A stretch of 34,647 bases of DNA from a virus. The position numbers were made by a program, and so were the translations under genes. Of this stretch, positions 2-16,369 are shown in pieces. How positions within the stretch are numbered: position 1 is the first letter of the stretch; each line of letters begins with the position of its first letter. Where the stretch lies: IMG/VR virus record IMGVR_UViG_3300032116_000721, positions 1-34,647 of that record. The stretch is one strand, 5' to 3'. The notes under the pieces were generated by a model, which was not told where the DNA came from, did no database searches, and saw only the letters and a program-made list of their open reading frames with translations.

Positions 2-2767
2 TTAACATCTGTTTCAACATCTAGTAAAGCAGTTAGTGCTTCATATGCTAGAAGTGCTTCATACGCTGTTAGTGCTTCTTTATCTCAAAATGCTATAACT
101 GCTAGTTATATATTACAAGCTGTAAGTTCAAGCTTTTCAACTACAGCTTCATATGCTATAACAGCTTCTTATGCTTTAAATGGTAGTGGAGGTAGTGTAG
201 ATACAAGTTCACTTGTTACAACTTCTTCTTTTAATCAATTTACATCTAGTTATTACATAGATAGTGCTTCATTTAGTTCAAGTATAGCTTCTTTAACAAC
301 AGCAACTAGTTCATATGTTTTAAATTCTCAAACTAGTTCAATGATTGTGTCAAGTGCTAGTTATGCTGATACAGCTTCATATGTTTTACAAGCTGTAAGT
401 TCATCATTTGCTTCAACAGCTTCTTATATAATTTTAGCCCAAACTTCATCATATGTTTTACAAGCCGTTTCAAGTTCATATTCAACAACTTCATCTTATT
501 CACTAGACTCAGACTTATTAGATGGAAAAGATAGTAGCATATTTGCTACAACAGGTTCAAACTTATTTATAGGAACTCAAGAAATAAGTGGTGCATTACA
601 ATTAAACCCAACTAATGACCCAGGAGGAGCAAACACAACTTCGTCATTTATATTTGTTACCTCATCTGGGGATAACACAGAATTTAATTTGCATTATAGA
701 AATAATGGAGCACTTTGGGAAACACATTGGCTAGAAGAAAGAGTTGATACTGGACTAGTTTGGGGAGGTGTAGTAACATTCTCAGGAACAACAATGTCAA
801 TAACTCCAGGAGCAGGTTTAATTATAAATCATAATGCTAATACAAGTTCTCATGGAGATACAATTCCAACATATGTTCAATTTGGACCTATTACAGCTTC
901 TGCTCAATTTATCACTTCATCTCAAATAACTTATTTATTAATTGATACTGATGGAAGTTTAATACAACAAACAAATATATTTACTCCTCAACAATTTAAT
1001 GAAAAATTACCATTAGGATATATCTTTTGTTTAACTACATCTTCAATTAGTAGTTATGCAGACGCTCGTACAACAACCTATGGACAAGATGAACAGCAAA
1101 CACAATTTATTAGAGCATTTGGTCCATTAAAAGTAAATGGATATGATATAACACCACAATCTGGAAGTTTAAAAATAAGTATAGCTTCTGGTAGATCATA
1201 TCGTTTTGGAGGTTTTTATATACAAAATCCTGATAATCCATCTATATATGATTCATCAAATATACCTACAGGTAGTTTAGTAAGAATATATAGAGACCCA
1301 GCTGTAGTTGGTGGATTTAAAGCAACACTAAACGGATTTGTTCCATTTACAGACATTGATCCTACAATGTGGGATGATGGAAGTGGTACATTACAAGCTG
1401 TAGGAGCTAATGAGTGGACAATTCAAAGAGTTTTTCAAGGGGTTGTTAATGGTATTAGTTATGTTTATTATGGTCAAAGTACTTATGACAGTTTAAATGC
1501 AGCTATTCAAAGTATAACAACAGAAGCATTTGAAGAATCACCAACAAGTATATTAGCTTTACCTTTTATTGGCTACATTATAGCAAGAGGTAACACAACA
1601 AATTTAGGAGATACAGTTAATAATAAAATAATAAATTCTGGTTTATTTAGAAATACAGCTGGTTCAAGTGGAGGTGGAGGTGTTGCTACAACAAATTTAA
1701 ATGATTTAGCAGATGTAAACATTGTATCTCCAAGTACAGGTCAAGCTTTAGTTTACAATGCTGGTTTATGGGAAAATAATACTCCTGCAAGCGCTTCATA
1801 TGCTAACACAGCTTCATATGTAGAAAATGCTCAAACCGCTTCATATATTTTAAACGCAATATCTAGCTCATATGCTAGTACTGCTTCATATATAGAATTA
1901 GCTCAATCAGCATCTTATGTTTTAAATGCAATAAGTTCTTCTTATTCTAATACTGCAAGTTATGTAGAATTAGCTCAAAGTGCTTCATATGTTTTACAAG
2001 CTATAAGTGCATCATTTGCTTCAACAGCTTCTTTTACACCAAATGCTTTAGTGACAGCATCTGTTAATTTAGACACAATTACTTTTACTAAAGGTGATGG
2101 TTCAACTTTTCCTATAACAGTTATAACAACAGGATCAAACACTACAGCTTCGTTTACTAATCAATCAACTTGGACTTTTAATCATAATTTAGGAACACAA
2201 CTAGTAATTATACAAGCTTTTAATACAAATTATGAACAAATAATCCCAAAAAGTATTACTTTAAATGGAATAAATCAAGCAACTATAACATTTCCTAGTA
2301 ATCAAAGCGGATATGCTGTGGCTTCTTTAGGTGGAAATTCTATATCAGAATTAAATAAAGTATATGTAGTTAGATTTCAAGCTACTGGTATAAATGCAGC
2401 GGATAATACTAGTTACTATGCTACTACATTAACTATAGCAACAACAAATCCTGCAGTACATAAATATACATTACCATATGATGTGACTTTAGTAGGAGCT
2501 CATATAACAGCTTATAATATAACAACAAATGCTACAAATGAATCATCAAGTGTATTTTTAAGATTAAATAATACAACTGATTATCTTATATCAAATGAAG
2601 TGGTACACGGAGGAACAGTCCCAGTAATGAATACTAAAGCTGTAACAGGATTATCCCAATCGTTTTCTGCTAATAATGATATTCAAATGAAATGGACAAC
2701 TCCAACATATGCAACAAACCCAGTTTCATCTGGAGTATTTTTAGATTTGTATTTTTATAAAACATAA
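2..2767 (+). CDS. Tail fibre / receptor-contact protein, 5' end cut by window edge
   Basis: The frame is open from base 2, so the gene begins upstream; at least 921 residues are visible. An internal ATG at 341 is not a credible start because the same repeat pattern continues before it. The N-terminal part and a block near residues 596-678 consist of [ST]-A-S-Y repeats with aromatic residues spaced 6 or 9 apart. Between them lies a non-repetitive region (roughly residues 180-560) without a domain I recognise. The C-terminal third is beta-rich, with an F-N-H-N-L-G motif of a kind common in phage fibre tips, and ends in a hydrophobic stretch. No enzymatic motif is visible. It belongs with the fibre genes that follow and probably contacts the cell surface or forms a fibre shaft. 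The exact structural role is inferred from composition and position. Confidence 0.75.
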   Translation, partial: LTSVSTSSKAVSASYARSASYAVSASLSQNAITASYILQAVSSSFSTTASYAITASYALNGSGGSVDTSSLVTTSSFNQFTSSYYIDSASFSSSIASLTTATSSYVLNSQTSSMIVSSASYADTASYVLQAVSSSFASTASYIILAQTSSYVLQAVSSSYSTTSSYSLDSDLLDGKDSSIFATTGSNLFIGTQEISGALQLNPTNDPGGANTTSSFIFVTSSGDNTEFNLHYRNNGALWETHWLEERVDTGLVWGGVVTFSGTTMSITPGAGLIINHNANTSSHGDTIPTYVQFGPITASAQFITSSQITYLLIDTDGSLIQQTNIFTPQQFNEKLPLGYIFCLTTSSISSYADARTTTYGQDEQQTQFIRAFGPLKVNGYDITPQSGSLKISIASGRSYRFGGFYIQNPDNPSIYDSSNIPTGSLVRIYRDPAVVGGFKATLNGFVPFTDIDPTMWDDGSGTLQAVGANEWTIQRVFQGVVNGISYVYYGQSTYDSLNAAIQSITTEAFEESPTSILALPFIGYIIARGNTTNLGDTVNNKIINSGLFRNTAGSSGGGGVATTNLNDLADVNIVSPSTGQALVYNAGLWENNTPASASYANTASYVENAQTASYILNAISSSYASTASYIELAQSASYVLNAISSSYSNTASYVELAQSASYVLQAISASFASTASFTPNALVTASVNLDTITFTKGDGSTFPITVITTGSNTTASFTNQSTWTFNHNLGTQLVIIQAFNTNYEQIIPKSITLNGINQATITFPSNQSGYAVASLGGNSISELNKVYVVRFQATGINAADNTSYYATTLTIATTNPAVHKYTLPYDVTLVGAHITAYNITTNATNESSSVFLRLNNTTDYLISNEVVHGGTVPVMNTKAVTGLSQSFSANNDIQMKWTTPTYATNPVSSGVFLDLYFYKT
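1787..2035 (+). repeat. 24-residue ASY super-repeat inside the fibre gene
   Basis: Eighty-three codons encode tandem ASY units. Aromatic residues fall at spacings 6, 9, 9, 6, 9, 9, 6, 9, 9, 6, giving a 24-residue (72-nt) superperiod. Typical units read TASYVELAQ, SASYVLQAI and SSSYAS. A similar but less regular array occupies about positions 35-500. This is a protein-coding structural repeat, probably a fibre shaft, not a mobile or CRISPR repeat. Confidence 0.85.
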
Positions 2768-2978: not shown

Positions 2979-3809
2979 ATGCAAATATTTGACCCATCAA
3001 TAACAGGTTCATTAGTAGCTACAGGTTCAATTACTTTTATAGGTAATATGATATTAACAGGATCATTAACCTCATCTCAAGGATTTTTTGGAACAGCTTC
3101 ATGGGCAGATAATGTTTCAACAGCATCATTAGCATTAGCAGGATCAGGTTCATTTAGTGGATCATTCTCAGGTTCATTTTTTGGTAATGGCAGTGAATTA
3201 ACAGGAATAACTGCTACATCTGCTCCAGCAGGTCAAGACAAATCAATACAATTTAATGATGCGGGCTCTACTTCTGGATCAGGAAATTTTACATTTCATA
3301 AAACTACAGATATTGTATCTGTTACAGGTTCAGTAATAGCTACCTCTTTTACAGGATCATTATTAGGTACAGCTTCATTAGCTACTTCAGCTTCATATGC
3401 TTTAACTGCTTCATTTTCTCCAGTTGAATCATCAACATCAGGAGTAGGTGTAACTCCAACAGCTACTCAAACTGATACTGTAACTCATGGATTAGGTCGT
3501 ACCCCGGTTAAAATAAGAATTTATGGCGCTTCACAATTTACTAATAACGCTTCAGCAGTTCCAACTCCTTTTAGTATAGGAACTTGGACTTCAAGTGGTA
3601 ATAGATGTATTTACCAACCTTATAATACTGCTGCTATTACAACAGCACAAGCTGCTGCTACTTCAACAACATTTGCAGTTCGTGTAGATACAGCCGCAAA
3701 CGTTTTTGTGACAGGAATTATTCAAAATGTTGGAGCTACTACATTTCAAATAGCTTGGACAGAGACTGGAGCAGCTGTAGCAAGAGTGTATATGTGGGAA
3801 GCAGAATAA
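2979..3809 (+). CDS. Tail fibre / virion surface protein with TGS repeats (276 aa)
   Basis: The N-terminal half has repeated [ST]-G-S-[LI]-x-x-[ST]-G units (ITGSLVATGSITFIGN, then GSFSGSFSGSFFGNGSEL) followed by TASLATSASYALTASF, so it shares both repeat styles with the first gene. The C-terminal domain (about residues 155-276) is non-repetitive and beta-rich. It includes HGLGRTPVKIRIYG and one cysteine in GNRCIYQPY, and looks like a fibre tip or knob. No catalytic motif is seen. The gene is the last before the first intergenic promoter-like motif, closing the left fibre cluster. Receptor-binding or decoration function is inferred from architecture. Confidence 0.7.
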   Translation: MQIFDPSITGSLVATGSITFIGNMILTGSLTSSQGFFGTASWADNVSTASLALAGSGSFSGSFSGSFFGNGSELTGITATSAPAGQDKSIQFNDAGSTSGSGNFTFHKTTDIVSVTGSVIATSFTGSLLGTASLATSASYALTASFSPVESSTSGVGVTPTATQTDTVTHGLGRTPVKIRIYGASQFTNNASAVPTPFSIGTWTSSGNRCIYQPYNTAAITTAQAAATSTTFAVRVDTAANVFVTGIIQNVGATTFQIAWTETGAAVARVYMWEAE

Positions 3810-6709: not shown

Positions 6710-7105
6710 ATGAGTAATTTAAAAGTAAATAGTATTGAACCCTACTCAAGCCCAAATGTAACTATTTCAGGCTCTTTAACTATATCAGGAAGTGGAGATC
6801 CAATAGTATTAGGATCAGGTTCAAATCCAGTAAATATAACTTCAAGTTATGCTTTAACTGCCTCTTATGCTTTAAATGGAGGTGGTGGTGGAGGATCAGA
6901 TTTTCCCTACACTGGAAGTGCTATTATAAGTGGTAGTTTAGAAGTAACAGGATCATTGGCTATTACTGGGTCAACTTTGTCTCCTCTTACTTTATTTAAT
7001 ATTCAAGAATTTCCTGATCAAGCTACTGCTGAATCAGCTGGTTTGACTACAGGAATGGTTTATAGAAATGGAGATTTTTTAATGATTGTAACAAGTAGTA
7101 TATAA
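6710..7105 (+). CDS. Short tail fibre protein with TGS/ASY repeats (131 aa)
   Basis: The N-terminus has SGSLTISGSG, then TSSYALTASYALNGGGGGG and a flexible glycine linker, followed by a second repeat block IISGSLEVTGSLAITGS. The last 40 residues (LFNIQEFPDQATAESAGL, then GMVYRNGDFLMIV) form a compact end module. The same repeat chemistry links it to the genes at 2979, 7123 and 8510, which suggests that these N-termini share a docking or assembly mechanism. The gly-run is encoded by GGT/GGA codons. Fibre role is inferred; no enzymatic residues are seen. Confidence 0.65.
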   Translation: MSNLKVNSIEPYSSPNVTISGSLTISGSGDPIVLGSGSNPVNITSSYALTASYALNGGGGGGSDFPYTGSAIISGSLEVTGSLAITGSTLSPLTLFNIQEFPDQATAESAGLTTGMVYRNGDFLMIVTSSI

Positions 7106-8509: not shown

Positions 8510-9517
8510 ATGCCTCCAAGAATTAATACAGTCAATTATATATCTGGATCTTTAACAGTAAAAGGAAATACTACATTCACTGGAACTACAGTATTTACAG
8601 GCTCAGTAACTATAAGTGGTTCAAACACCCTTGTAAATATAGGTCCATTCTTACAAAAAGGAGAAGTAGAAATCACAGGATCATTAGCACAAGGAGATGG
8701 AATATTAGCCTCAGGTTCATATTCGCATGCTCAAGGTCAACAAACTCAAGCTTTAGGAAATTATTCTCACGCTGAAGGTAGTAGTACTCAAGCAATAGGA
8801 AATTTTTCTCATGCTGAAGGAAGATTTTCTTATTCTTCAGGAGATTGGTCACATGCTGAAGGTTTAAGTACATTAGCATCTGGTTCACATTCACATACTG
8901 AAGGCCAATCTACAACAGCTATAGGAGGTTTCTCTCACGCTGAAGGTGATGGTACTCAAGCAATAGGAAATTGGTCACACGCTGAAGGTAGAATAAGTAA
9001 AGCTTCAGGATCATATTCACATGCTGAAGGACATCAAACTATAACTTTAGGAGATTGGTCACATACTGAAGGATATTTAACAACAGCCTCAGCTCAATAT
9101 TCACACGCTGAAGGTAGACAAACATTAGCTTCAGGCGATCACTCACACGCAGAAGGTAGACAAACAATAGCCTCAGGAATAGGAGCTCATGCAACAGGTT
9201 GGTATTCAACCGCCTCAGGTGATTATTCATTTGCTACAGGATTAGGTTCATCAGCAGATGCTAATTATCAAACGGTAGTGGGTAAATATAATGCTAAAGA
9301 TAACACAAATATATTTATTGTTGGAACTGGTACAAGTGATAGTAATAGAAAAAATGGATTAATAGTAACACCAAGTGGCTCTATAGTAGTTCCATCAACA
9401 GCCTCAGCTCCAACATATGTTGGAATGTCAGGAGAAATAGTACCTGTTGAAATTGGTGGAAATTATTACATTTATGTTTATATAGGTAATGCTTGGAGAA
9501 GTGCTTCACTAGCTTAA
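8510..9517 (+). CDS. Tail fibre with YadA-head-like SHAEG beta-roll repeats (335 aa)
   Basis: Residues 10-60 are TGS-type repeats (SGSLTVKGNTTFTGTTVFTG). Residues 71-252 are 13 tandem 14-residue units of the form [YFWH]-S-H-A-E-G-x7-G-x, the repeat of trimeric autotransporter adhesin heads (YadA/Hep_Hag type, a left-handed beta-roll). The last 80 residues are a distinct C-terminal domain starting GKYNAKDNTNIFIVGTG and ending in an aromatic strand (NYYIYVYIGNAWRSASLA). No anchor or signal peptide is present, so this is not a bacterial autotransporter; the fold is used as a trimeric fibre shaft. It closes the cassette and is followed by a strong hairpin terminator. Confidence 0.85.
   Translation: MPPRINTVNYISGSLTVKGNTTFTGTTVFTGSVTISGSNTLVNIGPFLQKGEVEITGSLAQGDGILASGSYSHAQGQQTQALGNYSHAEGSSTQAIGNFSHAEGRFSYSSGDWSHAEGLSTLASGSHSHTEGQSTTAIGGFSHAEGDGTQAIGNWSHAEGRISKASGSYSHAEGHQTITLGDWSHTEGYLTTASAQYSHAEGRQTLASGDHSHAEGRQTIASGIGAHATGWYSTASGDYSFATGLGSSADANYQTVVGKYNAKDNTNIFIVGTGTSDSNRKNGLIVTPSGSIVVPSTASAPTYVGMSGEIVPVEIGGNYYIYVYIGNAWRSASLA
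8720..9265 (+). repeat. Thirteen 42-nt (14-aa) SHAEG repeats
   Basis: Thirteen consecutive 14-codon units run without gap. Twelve begin aromatic/His-S-H-A-E-G or a close variant (SHAQG, SHTEG, AHATG), and the thirteenth is YSFATG. The last two units are the most degenerate. The DNA repeats are imperfect, and the encoded pattern is what is conserved. This could support unit gain or loss between related phages. Confidence 0.9.
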
Positions 9518-12022: not shown

Positions 12023-12511
12023 ATGGCAGTATTATCACCCAATGAAATATTTTTCACAGCGTTTGAACCTAAGGTAAAAAATCGCTTTATAATGTATGTT
12101 GATGGTATCCCTTCATATGTTATTAAAAAAATAGGTGCTGTAGGTGTAACAATGGATGAAATCGTATTAAACCATATTAACGTTTACCGTAAAATTAAAG
12201 GTAAAGCTAAATGGGATGATATAGAAATGACATTATTTGACCCTATCACTCCTTCAGGAGCTCAAGCAGTAATGGAATGGGTTCGTTTACATCACGAATC
12301 TGTTACAGGCCGTGATGGTTACTCTGATTTTTATAAGAAAGATGTAACTATTGATATTTTAGGTCCTGTAGGTGATATTGTTTCTGAATGGATTATTAAA
12401 GGAGCATTTATTAAATCAGCTAAATTTGGTGATTATAGCTGGGATGATGAAAACGCTGCTCAAGAAATCACTGTTAACTTAGGAATGGATTATTGTATCT
12501 TGAACTTCTAA
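12023..12511 (+). CDS. gp19: Tail tube protein, T4 gp19 family
   Basis: A 162-residue protein, nearly identical in length to T4 gp19 (163 aa), the subunit of the inner tube through which DNA passes. The sequence shows the expected pattern of a tail tube beta-barrel: KVKNRFIMYVDGIPSYVIKK, then DEIVLNHINVYRKIKGK, then WDDIEMTLFDP and a C-terminal SAKFGDYSWDDENAAQEI strand. It follows the sheath and ends with a strong terminator. CGT and AAC codons are more frequent here than in neighbouring genes, as expected for a highly expressed protein. Confidence 0.92.
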   Translation: MAVLSPNEIFFTAFEPKVKNRFIMYVDGIPSYVIKKIGAVGVTMDEIVLNHINVYRKIKGKAKWDDIEMTLFDPITPSGAQAVMEWVRLHHESVTGRDGYSDFYKKDVTIDILGPVGDIVSEWIIKGAFIKSAKFGDYSWDDENAAQEITVNLGMDYCILNF

Positions 12512-12611: not shown

Positions 12612-13340
12612 ATGGAAAGAACAATTGCAACAGAAATAATTGACCTACCTTCAAAAGGTCTAATTTACCCAGAAGACAATCCTTTATCAAGCGGTGCTAT
12701 TGAAATGAAATATATGACCGCTAAAGAAGAAGATATTTTAACTAATCAAAATTATATTCAAAAAGGTATAGTTTTAGATAAATTACTTCAAGCTTTAATT
12801 GTATCAAAAGTTAATTATAATGATCTAATTGTAGGAGATAAAAATGCTATAATGATAGCAGCCCGTATTTTAGGTTATGGTAAAGATTATATATTTGAAT
12901 ATGATGGCCAAGAATATACAGTAGATTTATCTCTTATAGATAATAAAGAATTTGATGCTTCTAAATTAGTATCTAAAGGAATTAATGAATTTAGTTATAC
13001 TTTACCATCAAATGGTATAAACATTACTTATAAAATCTTAACTCATGGTGATGAACAAAAAATTAGTAATGAAATAGAAGGTCTTAAAAAAATTAATAAA
13101 AACGTTTCTCCTGAATTATCAACAAGATTAAAATATATGATAACTTCAGTTAATGGAGATCGAGAAACTAAAACAATCCGAGAATTTGTTGATAATCATC
13201 TTTTAGCTCGAGATTCGCGAGAATTAAGAAAACACATTAAAGAAACTCAACCAGACGTAGATCTGACTTTTTTTCCCGATGGAAGTTCCAATAGAGTCGA
13301 TATCCCAGTTGGGATTAAGTTTTTTTGGCCTGACTTCTGA
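12612..13340 (+). CDS. gp26: T4 gp26-type baseplate/tail assembly protein
   Basis: A 242-residue protein of the T4 base-plate family represented by gp26 (T4: 208 aa). The N-terminal signature is clear: DLPSKGLIYPEDNPL, then GAIEMKYMTAKEEDIL, then a helix with LDKLLQALI. The C-terminus ends in DIPVGIKFFWPDF. T4 gp26 is classed as a baseplate hub assembly protein. Here the gene lies between the tail tube and the tape measure, where other phages place tail assembly chaperones. Its last 62 nt overlap a second open frame (13279-13653), and two runs of seven T's, 13268-13274 and 13320-13326, lie at or near the ends of that overlap. This makes programmed frameshifting a real possibility. Confidence 0.8.
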   Translation: MERTIATEIIDLPSKGLIYPEDNPLSSGAIEMKYMTAKEEDILTNQNYIQKGIVLDKLLQALIVSKVNYNDLIVGDKNAIMIAARILGYGKDYIFEYDGQEYTVDLSLIDNKEFDASKLVSKGINEFSYTLPSNGINITYKILTHGDEQKISNEIEGLKKINKNVSPELSTRLKYMITSVNGDRETKTIREFVDNHLLARDSRELRKHIKETQPDVDLTFFPDGSSNRVDIPVGIKFFWPDF

Positions 13341-13653
13341 AACAGCTCCAATAATTAGAGCTAATTTATTTACTCAAATACATGAAATAGTATTTCATGG
13401 TAAAGGCGGATATGACTGGCATACTGTTTATGAGATGCCACGTTGGCTCCGCCAATTTACTTTTAATAAAATAGATGAATTTTATAAAAAAGAAAATGAA
13501 GAGTATGAAAAAGCTAAAGGTGGTGGTTCTAATAAATCAACATTAATTGACCCATCAGGTAAAATTAATAAGGAAAATTGGAAAAGTGTACCTAAACCAA
13601 TAACGCCTGGAACATCTAATAATTCATCTAAACCTAGAGTTAAATATAAATAA
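13279..13653 (+). CDS. Overlapping downstream frame, gp51-like; possible frameshift extension of gp26
   Basis: A 124-codon frame counted from ATG 13279; the frame is open from 13267. It contains ANLFTQIHEIVFHGKGGY then DWHTVYEMPRWLRQFTF, a compact conserved-looking domain, and ends in a Lys/Ser/Pro-rich disordered tail. T4 has gene 51 directly after gene 26, but gp51 is 249 aa, so equivalence is uncertain. The ATG has no A-rich leader, unlike most starts here. The frame is +1 (equivalently -2) to gp26, and both T7 runs allow slippage; at 13320-13326 a +1 slip would re-pair TTT with TTT and join GIKFF to GLTSETAPI. It may be made as a fusion, by internal initiation, or both. Confidence 0.7.
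   Translation: MEVPIESISQLGLSFFGLTSETAPIIRANLFTQIHEIVFHGKGGYDWHTVYEMPRWLRQFTFNKIDEFYKKENEEYEKAKGGGSNKSTLIDPSGKINKENWKSVPKPITPGTSNNSSKPRVKYK
13320..13326 (+). promoter_or_regulatory. Candidate frameshift site, run of seven T
   Basis: In the gp26 frame the codons read AAG TTT TTT TGG, with the sevenfold T followed by GG. A +1 slip of the second TTT keeps perfect codon-anticodon pairing and enters the downstream frame at GGC. A matching T7 run lies at 13268-13274. No convincing downstream hairpin was found by eye. Confidence 0.4.
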
Positions 13654-13696: not shown

Positions 13697-16369
13697 ATGG
13701 CTGATGATAAAAATAAACTAGATTCCAAAGAAATAGAAGAATTAAGAAAACTTATACAACTTTTACAAAAAGAAATAAGTGAACTTGATTTTAAAAAATT
13801 AATAGAATCAGGAGGATCAGCCCGAACTCTTTTAGATAGTTTACGAAAAGAAGCAAAAGAACTTAATGATGATTTTAATGATGCTTCTTTTAATTTTAAA
13901 AAAATAGTTCAAGAAATTAAAAATTCTGATGAAGGCTTTAAATCCGCAAGTAAATCATTTAACAAACTATCAGAAATAGCTGAAAAAGTAAAGTATCATC
14001 AATCTGGTATTTCTAAACTATCATCTGATGAAATTAAAAATTTACAAAAACAAGTTGCTCAAGAAAAACAAAGGTTAGCAGATTCTAGTAAATTTTTAAA
14101 TAATAAAACATCTAAATTACAAAAAATTAGTTCTGAACTTGATAGTGAAATCCAAAAATTAACTAACCAAGATTTTCTTTTAGATAAAGAATATGATAGA
14201 TTAGGTAGTCTTTTAAATAGACAAGAAAAAATAAATAAAGAATTAAGTAAAACAGAGGCAATTCATAAACAAGTTAACGCTGCTATAAATGATGAGGATA
14301 AATCTTTTCAAGCTTTAGATAAAACATTAGGAAATATAAATAAGCAAACAGAAGACGAAAATAAAAAATTAGCAGGTACAAAAGGATTAATAGCAGGAGT
14401 AAATGAAATACCATTTTTAAGAGGAATAACAGATACTAATAAAATGTTAGATGCTGCTAATGCTAAAATAGCAGCTGGTGGAAGTGGAACCCAAGCTTTA
14501 GGGGCAGCTTTTAAAAATTTAGGAGGACAAATAAAAGGTAACCTAATAAATCCAGTAACTATAGTTGTATTTTTAGTACAACAATTAATAGAAGCTCTTA
14601 AAATAGCTGATACATCTACTGGAGATTTAGCTAAACAATTTGATTTAACATATCAAGGAGCTAGTAGTGTTAGAAGAGAATTAAATAGTATAGCTAATGA
14701 ATCTATGGATACTGCTGTAACTACTAAAGGATTGCAAGAATCTATGGTAGCTATAGGTAAATCTTTAGGTGTTAATACTCAATTAAATAAAGAAGATTTA
14801 ATTACTTTTACTAAATTAAGAGAACAAGCGGGATTTACTAATGATGAGTTAATAGGAATTCAAAGAACAACCTTAGCTACAGGCGGCAGTTTAGAAGATA
14901 ATGCTAAATCATTTATGGGTACTGTAGCTAAAATGAATGCCCAAAATAAATTAGCTATAAACGCTAAACAATTATTAAAAGAAGTAGCTAATGTTTCAGA
15001 CGCTATTAAATTGTCAGTTGGTGGAACAGCAACCAAATTAGCTGAAGCTGCATTTAAAGCAAAACAATTTGGTATTAATTTAGAACAAGCCGATAAAATA
15101 TCTCAAAGTTTGTTAGACTTTGAAAACTCAATTAACAATGAAATATCAGCTGAATTAATCACTGGTAAAGATTTAAATTTTGAAAAAGCAAGATTATTAG
15201 CCATTAATGGTGATATAGCAGGTGCATCAGCTGAAATATTAAAACAAGTAGGTGGTACAGCTGAATTTACTAAGATGAATCGTATTCAACAAGAAGCTAT
15301 AGCTAAAGCTGCGGGTATGACAAGAGATGAATTAGCTAAATCTTTAGTTGATAGAGAAGCTGCTCAAAAATTAGGTGCTAAAGAAGGCCAATCTGCTCAA
15401 GATAGATATAATGAGTTAGTTAAACAATATGGAGTTGAAAAAGCTAGTGCTATGTTAGGTGATGAAGCATTAGCTAATCAATTTAAACAACAATCAGTAC
15501 AAGAAAGATTTACAGCTGCTATTGAAAAATTAAAAGAAGTATTTATAAGTTTAGCTGATCCTTTGATGGCGGTATTTGATATTTTTGCATTAATTTTAAA
15601 ACCTGTAGGAGCTATAGCTGGAATTATAGGAATGGTAGTTGGAGGTCCTTTAAAAACCATGATTGATGGTGTAACTAAAATATTTGGATTATTTACAGGC
15701 TCTACTAAAGAATTAGGATTTTGGGAGGCTACTTTAGGTTCAATAGCTATTATAGTTGGGGCTATTAAAACATATCAATTTGCTATAGCTGGATATGAAA
15801 AATTAGCTGCTTTTTATGCTGGAGTTAAAGCCGCTGCTGAAAAACAAGGTTTGATATCTTTAGCAGCTCAAATAGGAAGACAAGCAATATTAACTGCTTC
15901 TAAAATAGCAGCAGCAGTAGCTGAAATAACTGGTATGTCTGCTGCTACATTAGGTGTAGCGGCGGGTATAGCATTAGCAGCTGGAGCCGCTGCTTGGGCA
16001 TTTTTAGGTAGTAAAAAAGGAAATGACGTAGTTTCTCAAGGATATGGCAAACGTACATTGATGGGACCTGAAGGTAAAATAGCATTAAATGATAAAGACA
16101 CAGTAATAGCAGGGACAAATTTATTTCCTAAAGAAAAATCATCATCACCTTCTATTTCTCCTCCACCTTCACCAGCTATTGCTGCTGCTACTGCAGTCAC
16201 TGCTGCTACTACTACTAATAAACAAGACAATAAAGATATTGTTAATGAATTAAAAACTATAAAATCAGAACAATCTAAAGCTAACTCTAAACCGACAGTC
16301 ATAGAAAATAATATGAATGGTACTAATTTTGGTACTGCTGTAGCTATGAGTACTTATAAAACTCAATAA
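13697..16369 (+). CDS. Tail tape measure protein (890 aa), functional analogue of T4 gp29
   Basis: The first 230 residues are a long Lys/Glu-rich coiled coil (ELRKLIQLLQKEISEL and similar). The middle is helical and Ala-rich. Hydrophobic, membrane-like segments occur near residues 286-300 (TIVVFLVQQLIEAL), 623-655 (ending in VGAIAGIIGMVVGGPL) and 750-772 (LGVAAGIALAAGAAAWAFLG). The C-terminus is a Pro/Ser/Ala linker followed by a short NNMNGTNFGTAVAMSTYKTQ end. Coiled coil plus a few hydrophobic helices, and position after the gp26-like genes, are the usual signs of a tape measure, which sets tail length and may form a membrane channel. It is longer than T4 gp29 (590 aa), which predicts a longer tail. 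I see no lysozyme or peptidase motif inside it. Confidence 0.8.
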   Translation: MADDKNKLDSKEIEELRKLIQLLQKEISELDFKKLIESGGSARTLLDSLRKEAKELNDDFNDASFNFKKIVQEIKNSDEGFKSASKSFNKLSEIAEKVKYHQSGISKLSSDEIKNLQKQVAQEKQRLADSSKFLNNKTSKLQKISSELDSEIQKLTNQDFLLDKEYDRLGSLLNRQEKINKELSKTEAIHKQVNAAINDEDKSFQALDKTLGNINKQTEDENKKLAGTKGLIAGVNEIPFLRGITDTNKMLDAANAKIAAGGSGTQALGAAFKNLGGQIKGNLINPVTIVVFLVQQLIEALKIADTSTGDLAKQFDLTYQGASSVRRELNSIANESMDTAVTTKGLQESMVAIGKSLGVNTQLNKEDLITFTKLREQAGFTNDELIGIQRTTLATGGSLEDNAKSFMGTVAKMNAQNKLAINAKQLLKEVANVSDAIKLSVGGTATKLAEAAFKAKQFGINLEQADKISQSLLDFENSINNEISAELITGKDLNFEKARLLAINGDIAGASAEILKQVGGTAEFTKMNRIQQEAIAKAAGMTRDELAKSLVDREAAQKLGAKEGQSAQDRYNELVKQYGVEKASAMLGDEALANQFKQQSVQERFTAAIEKLKEVFISLADPLMAVFDIFALILKPVGAIAGIIGMVVGGPLKTMIDGVTKIFGLFTGSTKELGFWEATLGSIAIIVGAIKTYQFAIAGYEKLAAFYAGVKAAAEKQGLISLAAQIGRQAILTASKIAAAVAEITGMSAATLGVAAGIALAAGAAAWAFLGSKKGNDVVSQGYGKRTLMGPEGKIALNDKDTVIAGTNLFPKEKSSSPSISPPPSPAIAAATAVTAATTTNKQDNKDIVNELKTIKSEQSKANSKPTVIENNMNGTNFGTAVAMSTYKTQ

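What the first reader, a model, noticed from the sequence alone, without database searches (positions are those of the whole stretch)
12612..13653. gp26-like gene overlaps a second frame bracketed by two T7 runs: candidate programmed frameshift before the tape measure
The gp26-type frame and the next frame overlap by 62 nt. The second frame is open from 13267 and relates to gp26 by +1 (or -2). Runs of seven T occur at 13268-13274 and 13320-13326. At the second, AAG TTT TTT T GGC allows a +1 slip with perfect re-pairing. The pair sits between tail tube and tape measure, the place where many tailed phages make two tail chaperones by frameshifting (lambda G/GT by -1, Mu by -2). If real, this would link the T4 gp26/gp51 pair to that chaperone system. 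The downstream ATG also lacks the A-rich leader of other starts here.
Basis: partly seen in the sequence, partly recalled or inferred. Interest (0 to 1): 0.65.

Follow-up and report, generated by a model that had tools for sequence, protein, structure and literature searches.

The report
Plus-one frameshift in phage tail chaperones
Near the end of a phage tail-assembly gene, ribosomes most likely skip one base at a run of seven T's, so one gene makes a short and a long tail chaperone; hundreds of related phages keep this arrangement, and some leave the second half no other way to be made.

Summary
Relatives fetched by protein similarity gave 135 distinct junctions. In all of them the downstream frame is +1 to the gp26-like frame. 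The second run (TTT TTT TGG) is kept in 103, 28 have TTT CTT TGG and 2 have TTT CTA TGG. CUU_U and UUU_U are the +1 shift sites known from bacterial prfB. The window's ATG is not conserved: 75 of 281 junctions have no ATG/GTG/TTG upstream of the slip, and in 58 the +1 frame closes within three codons of it. Synonymous codon conservation peaks exactly at the slip. Where a homing-endonuclease gene separates the two genes, the run is broken (TTC TTC TGG) and the second gene has its own ATG.
The two parts match the short form (T4 gp26, phrog_150) and the extra C-terminal domain (T4 gp51, phrog_634) of T4-like tail assembly chaperones. That link was published in 2022 for other T4-like phages. There the shift is -1 at U_UUU_UUC, and T4 uses two paralogous genes. 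New here is the +1 direction at the homologous di-Phe site in a large, mostly uncultured clade. No frameshift product was observed. The first T run is conserved only in the window's subclade and stays unexplained.

The parts
12612..13340 (+). short chaperone (TAC-N), gp26-like, 242 aa, zero-frame product
   Evidence: ORF; phrog_150 baseplate hub E 2e-6; AlphaFold2 pLDDT 90; Foldseek to SP-15 baseplate hub subunit E 2.4e-16 and T4-like baseplate hub assembly protein E 5e-12
13320..13334 (+). +1 shift site TTT TTT T|GG CCT GAC
   Evidence: TTT TTT TGG in 103 of 135 distinct junctions from protein searches, TTT CTT TGG in 28; strongest synonymous conservation in the 378-column fusion alignment; all Phe codons TTT
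13327..13653 (+). +1-frame C-terminal domain (TAC-C, gp51-C-like), 108 aa after the slip; predicted long product join(12612..13325,13327..13653), 346 aa
   Evidence: +1 in 372 of 372 loci; profile match to phrog_634/T4 gp51 C-terminal family, probability 92.9, E 3.7e-7; in-silico fusion P0001
13279..13281 (+). ATG of the second ORF; probably not a real start
   Evidence: Not conserved: ATG upstream of the slip in 77 of 281 junctions, no ATG/GTG/TTG in 75, frame closed within 3 codons in 58
13268..13277 (+). first T run, TTTTTTTCCC; subclade feature, role unknown, possibly an auxiliary shift site
   Evidence: Second peak of synonymous conservation (CCC 44/44); +1 frame open between the runs in 59/59 loci with run 1 against 97/216 without
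12023..12511 (+). tail tube protein (gp19-like), context
   Evidence: phrog_4542 E 2.5e-22
13697..16369 (+). tape measure protein, context
   Evidence: phrog_167 E 1e-12

Best explanation
This is a tail assembly chaperone locus of the lambda G/GT kind in a T4-like tail module, expressed by a programmed +1 ribosomal frameshift. Most ribosomes translate the gp26-like frame to its stop and make the short chaperone. A fraction slip forward one base where peptidyl-tRNA sits on a YUU codon followed by U (or on UUU followed by Y, one codon earlier) at the conserved di-Phe, and continue into the C-terminal domain, giving a long chaperone fused at ...KFF-GLTSE.... By analogy with lambda, the N part would bind the tape measure protein and the C part would recruit tube subunits. 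Shown here: the conserved +1 geometry, the nucleotide-level conservation of the slip, the lack of usable starts in part of the clade, the gene context, and homology of both parts to T4-like chaperones. Inferred: that the shift happens on the ribosome, its efficiency, and the chaperone function.
For: +1 in all 135 distinct junctions from protein searches and in 372/372 loci; slip codons confined to YUU_U apart from 2 TTT CTA TGG, and TTC TTC TGG only where the genes are separated and the second has its own ATG; top synonymous conservation at the slip; no standard start upstream in 75/281 and frame closed within 3 codons in 58/281; CUU_U and UUU_U are the shift sites of bacterial prfB (PMC5009743); stand-alone second genes begin with an IPxGxxxFxxT segment of the same length as the +1 junction peptide; position between tube and tape measure; C part related to phrog_634/gp51 C-term, N part to phrog_150; the same split occurs at -1 in P-SSM2, S-PM2, KVP40 and others.
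Against: No product has been observed. No conserved stimulatory RNA structure or correctly spaced Shine-Dalgarno-like element was found. In two distinct junctions the second domain is encoded alone, so the fusion cannot be strictly required in every phage. Counts are not phylogenetically independent.
Confidence: 0.88

Rival explanations
1. The second gene is translated independently (own start or translational coupling inside the overlap); the T run is conserved for other reasons.
For: The window has an ATG and a TTG in frame. Many relatives have a TTG 12 nt before the slip. Two lineages with separated genes use their own ATG. LR756511 has an ATG at the gp26 stop.
Against: ATG not conserved; 75 of 281 junctions have no ATG/GTG/TTG upstream and 52 of these none in the next 18 codons either; the +1 frame is closed within 3 codons upstream in 58. 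The T run is lost exactly where an own ATG exists.
Confidence: 0.06
2. RNA polymerase slips on the T7 run and a fraction of transcripts lack one U, giving the same fusion without ribosomal slippage.
For: Homopolymeric run of 7, occasionally 8, in a very A+T-rich genome.
Against: 28 distinct junctions have the run interrupted (TTTCTTT) while geometry and +1 frame are kept; run length stays at 7-8 and never grows; CUU_U and UUU_U are known ribosomal shift sites.
Confidence: 0.05
3. The shift is -2 (as in phage Mu) rather than +1; frame and products are nearly the same but one extra Phe is inserted (KFFF-GLT).
For: On TTT TTT T a -2 slip of a P-site tRNA also re-pairs perfectly; the reading frame reached is identical (inference from sequence).
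Against: Stand-alone second genes keep the +1 spacing (11 residues, not 12). TTT CTA TGG is compatible with a +1 slip at UUU_C but not with -2. CUU_U/UUU_U are known +1 sites.
Confidence: 0.06

Closest known systems
T4-like tail assembly chaperones: gp26 (short) and gp51 (long) of T4, and -1 frameshifted TAC-N/TAC-NC of other T4-like phages (Vladimirov et al. 2022, as cited in PMC12846349 and PMC10885494)
   Same: Same protein families (phrog_150 and phrog_634), same split into a short form and a form with an extra C-terminal domain, same terminal di-Phe site.
   Different: Those shift -1 at U_UUU_UUC/U or, in T4, use two paralogous genes on opposite strands; here the shift is +1 at YUU_UGG.
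Phage lambda gpG/gpGT
   Same: Pair between tail tube gene and tape measure gene; downstream domain reached only by frameshift near the end of the first gene (PMC5009743).
   Different: Lambda shifts -1; no sequence relation was tested.
Bacterial prfB (release factor 2) +1 frameshift
   Same: CUU_U or UUU_U shift codon with +1 direction.
   Different: prfB has UGA in the A site and an upstream Shine-Dalgarno-like stimulator; here UGG and no such element found. Unrelated gene.
Influenza A PA-X +1 frameshift (UCC_UUU_CGU)
   Same: +1 shift at UUU followed by Y (PMC3498833); phage SagM-GXN1 has TTC TTT CGT at this very junction.
   Different: Eukaryotic ribosome, unrelated genes; resemblance of the shift site only.
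HSTV-2 (haloarchaeal myovirus) tail chaperone
   Same: Reported as very likely +1 frameshifting in a tail chaperone gene pair (PMC5009743; PMC8211752).
   Different: Archaeal virus; sequence relation not tested.

Membership tests
Tailed-phage tail assembly chaperone pair (G/GT, TAC-N/TAC-NC) | two overlapping frames between major tail tube and tape measure genes | tested here: met
Tailed-phage tail assembly chaperone pair (G/GT, TAC-N/TAC-NC) | conserved relative frame and shift site across relatives | tested here: met
Tailed-phage tail assembly chaperone pair (G/GT, TAC-N/TAC-NC) | second domain lacks its own start | tested here: met
   No ATG/GTG/TTG upstream in 75/281, closed within 3 codons in 58; exception: two separated lineages. 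In the window itself an ATG exists but is not conserved.
Tailed-phage tail assembly chaperone pair (G/GT, TAC-N/TAC-NC) | fusion protein made in a minor amount, absent from virions, binds the tape measure | not testable with these tools
   needs proteomics and binding assays
Tailed-phage tail assembly chaperone pair (G/GT, TAC-N/TAC-NC) | fold of known tail chaperones (HK97 gp13, 2ob9) | tested here: inconclusive
   2ob9 is the highest-probability hit among the 50 listed for the N part but only prob 0.23, E 4.0
T4_baseplate (PF12322 / phrog_150, gp26/gp51 N part) | sequence or profile match | tested here: met
   phrog_150 E 2e-6; profile-profile 69%, E 4.4e-5; Pfam PF12322 itself not reached by the window protein but SP-15, its structural neighbour, passes it
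T4 gp51 C-terminal domain (phrog_634) | profile match of the +1 domain | tested here: met
   hhalign 92.9%, E 3.7e-7 over 47 columns; single-sequence comparison with T4 gp51 not significant
prfB-type +1 frameshift site | CUU_U or UUU_U shift codon | tested here: met
   131 of 135 distinct junctions; comparison text
prfB-type +1 frameshift site | stop codon in the A site and Shine-Dalgarno-like element a few nt upstream | tested here: not met
   A site is UGG; no such element at that spacing in the alignments
-1 heptamer (X_XXY_YYZ) tail chaperone frameshift | downstream domain in the -1 frame | tested here: not met
   in the window the -1 frame stops at TGA 13331-13333; +1 in all relatives of the clade

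The most novel reading that the evidence does not exclude
The same di-Phe codon pair at the end of the gp26-type chaperone has switched frameshift direction (-1 in cyanophage- and KVP40-like lineages, +1 in this clade and probably in SP-15-like phages) while the encoded split protein stayed the same; and in the window's subclade two tandem +1 sites (UUU_UUU_CCC and UUU_UUU_UGG) may feed the same frame.
Probability: 0.5. Interest if true: 0.7.

Novelty: new variant of a known kind. Interest (0 to 1): 0.55.

Why it matters
It gives a large natural set of +1 frameshift sites (hundreds of phages) with built-in controls: interrupted runs (CUU_U), closed upstream frames, and loci where an inserted endonuclease gene goes with a lost shift site. 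It suggests that a conserved protein architecture can be kept while the direction of recoding changes, which makes the evolution of recoding signals testable. It also explains why annotators of Flavobacterium phages and relatives miss or truncate a tail gene.

Tried and rejected
RNA structure: RNAalifold on both subclades and single-sequence z-scores gave no conserved stem. An upstream GAGGAGG in the subclade without run 1 lies about 23 nt from the slip, too far for a prfB-like effect, and codes a conserved GEEV. Phe codon usage alone (86% TTT) makes the T run only moderately surprising, so it was not used as sole evidence. PDB sequence searches found nothing relevant. hhalign of the C part against T4 gp51 alone was not significant. 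A first junction count also read alignment files and was redone. The 2022 T4-like chaperone paper is not held, so whether it already mentions any +1 case could not be checked.

Full report
OBSERVATION. The pair lies between a gp19-like tube gene (phrog_4542, 2.5e-22) and a tape measure gene (phrog_167, 1e-12), downstream of a sheath gene. T7 as such is not enriched in the window (28 against 57 expected), but the 15-mer TTTTTTTGGCCTGAC is unique, and 119 of 120 IMG/VR contigs returned for it contain a gp26 homologue.

CONSERVATION. Protein searches with the second frame and its relatives gave 135 distinct junctions, all +1; over every locus including pattern hits it is 372 of 372. The slip codons are TTT TTT TGG (103), TTT CTT TGG (28, the immuto group), TTT CTA TGG (2: L457, L482) and TTC TTC TGG (2). 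In a codon alignment of 66 fusions, the five codons centred on the slip are the most conserved synonymous stretch of all 378 columns (mean excess 0.94). Phe codons at the slip are TTT in 132/132 against 86% background and 73-97% at other conserved Phe columns. Distinct sequences are not phylogenetically independent, so these counts are not probabilities.

NO CONSERVED START. In 281 distinct junctions only 77 have an ATG in the +1 frame between the upstream stop and the slip; 75 have no ATG/GTG/TTG, 52 of those have none in the next 18 codons either, and in 58 the frame is closed within three codons of the slip (first set). The window's ATG arises from GAT GGA and is lost in most relatives. Accordingly the isolate Flavobacterium phage immuto has the second gene annotated as a short ORF only (150651-150761; sequence).

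NATURAL EXPERIMENT. In L015 and L016/L018 a GIY-YIG-type homing endonuclease gene (assigned by eye from its sequence) lies between the two genes. There gp26 still ends FFWPDF but in codons TTC TTC TGG CCT GAT, and the second gene begins at an ATG with MKPTEIKIPLGLNMFGIT... or MMQNKIINVPLGLNLFNIT.... These N-termini resemble the predicted junction peptide IPVGIKFF-GLT in sequence and have its +1 length, not the -2 length. They also show that the second domain can exist as a separate protein, so the fusion is not strictly indispensable.

MECHANISM. The review of Atkins et al. states that the prfB shift site is CUU_U and that UUU_U occurs in a small minority of species (PMC5009743). Those are the two sites seen here, followed by UGG instead of UGA. 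An alternative that covers all variants, including CTA and the more distant phages SP-15 (TTT TTT CAC), LIS04 (TTT TTT AGT) and SagM-GXN1 (TTC TTT CGT), is a slip of tRNA-Phe at UUU_Y one codon earlier, as in influenza PA-X UCC_UUU_CGU (PMC3498833; junctions). In the window both give KFF-GLT. The interrupted run in 28 junctions argues against polymerase slippage. No conserved stimulatory structure was found.

WHAT THE PROTEINS ARE. The N part matches phrog_150 (E 2e-6) and, by profile, T4-like gp26 (probability 69%, E 4.4e-5). Its AlphaFold2 model (pLDDT 90) finds baseplate hub subunits of SP-15 (2.4e-16) and T4-like phages (5e-12) in BFVD. In PDB the HK97 chaperone 2ob9 has the highest probability among the 50 listed hits, but only 0.23, which is not significant. 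The C part has no significant family in PHROGs or Pfam but matches the phrog_634 / gp51 C-terminal family by profile (92.9%, E 3.7e-7).

T4 AND RELATIVES. T4 gp26 and gp51 both belong to PF12322, and gp51 carries the phrog_634 domain as a C-terminal extension; the genes are on opposite strands. In P-SSM2, S-PM2, HTVC008M, KVP40, phiM12, phiW-14 and ViI the phrog_634 domain follows the single PF12322 gene in the -1 frame, with T TTT TTC or T TTT TTT just before the gp26 stop in all but ViI. gp26-type proteins share the terminal di-Phe: GLQSFFV, GIEDFFV, NSEFFHARFDD, VGIKFFWPDF, T4 GLKEFFELL. The 2016 review called T4 the exception to the G/GT rule. That was resolved by Vladimirov, Gautam & Davidson 2022, cited in PMC12846349 and PMC10885494, which describe a short gene plus a fused longer gene in some T4-like phages and poly-T -1 signals in others. 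The paper itself is not held. The link of gp26/gp51 to chaperones is therefore not new. The +1 direction in this clade is, as far as the held literature shows; +1 was suggested before for the tail chaperone of haloarchaeal myovirus HSTV-2.

OPEN POINT. Run 1 (TTTTTTTCCC) is a subclade feature with its own synonymous conservation (CCC 44/44), and the +1 frame between the runs is open in 59/59 with run 1 against 97/216 without. This could mean a second +1 site (UUU_C) or shared ancestry; it is not resolved here.

Noticed in passing
window 13268-13277 and relatives with TTTTTTTCCC: The first T run has its own synonymous conservation (CCC in 44/44) and the +1 frame is open between the runs in 59/59 such loci against 97/216 others; role unknown.
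   Followed up: partly
L015:1872-2498, L016:1801-2484 (and L018): A GIY-YIG-type homing endonuclease gene inserted exactly between the two chaperone frames, with the shift site lost and the overlap-coded peptide present in both genes.
   Followed up: yes
window 8510-9517: ORF with many SHAEG...A.G repeats resembling trimeric adhesin head repeats, in a phage structural region.
   Followed up: no
window 2-2767, 2979-3809, 6710-7105: Several ORFs rich in TASYxLxA / SGSFSGSF-type repeats, possibly fibre or adhesion proteins.
   Followed up: no
L409: gp26 homologue interrupted by an in-frame TAA mid-gene although both halves and the slip site (TTT CTT TGG) are intact; assembly error or decay.
   Followed up: no
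L083 (Microcystis phage Mel-JY01) and L082 (Flavobacterium phage immuto): The second chaperone frame is annotated from a TTG or from a late internal ATG; both annotations are probably wrong starts of a frameshift product.
   Followed up: yes
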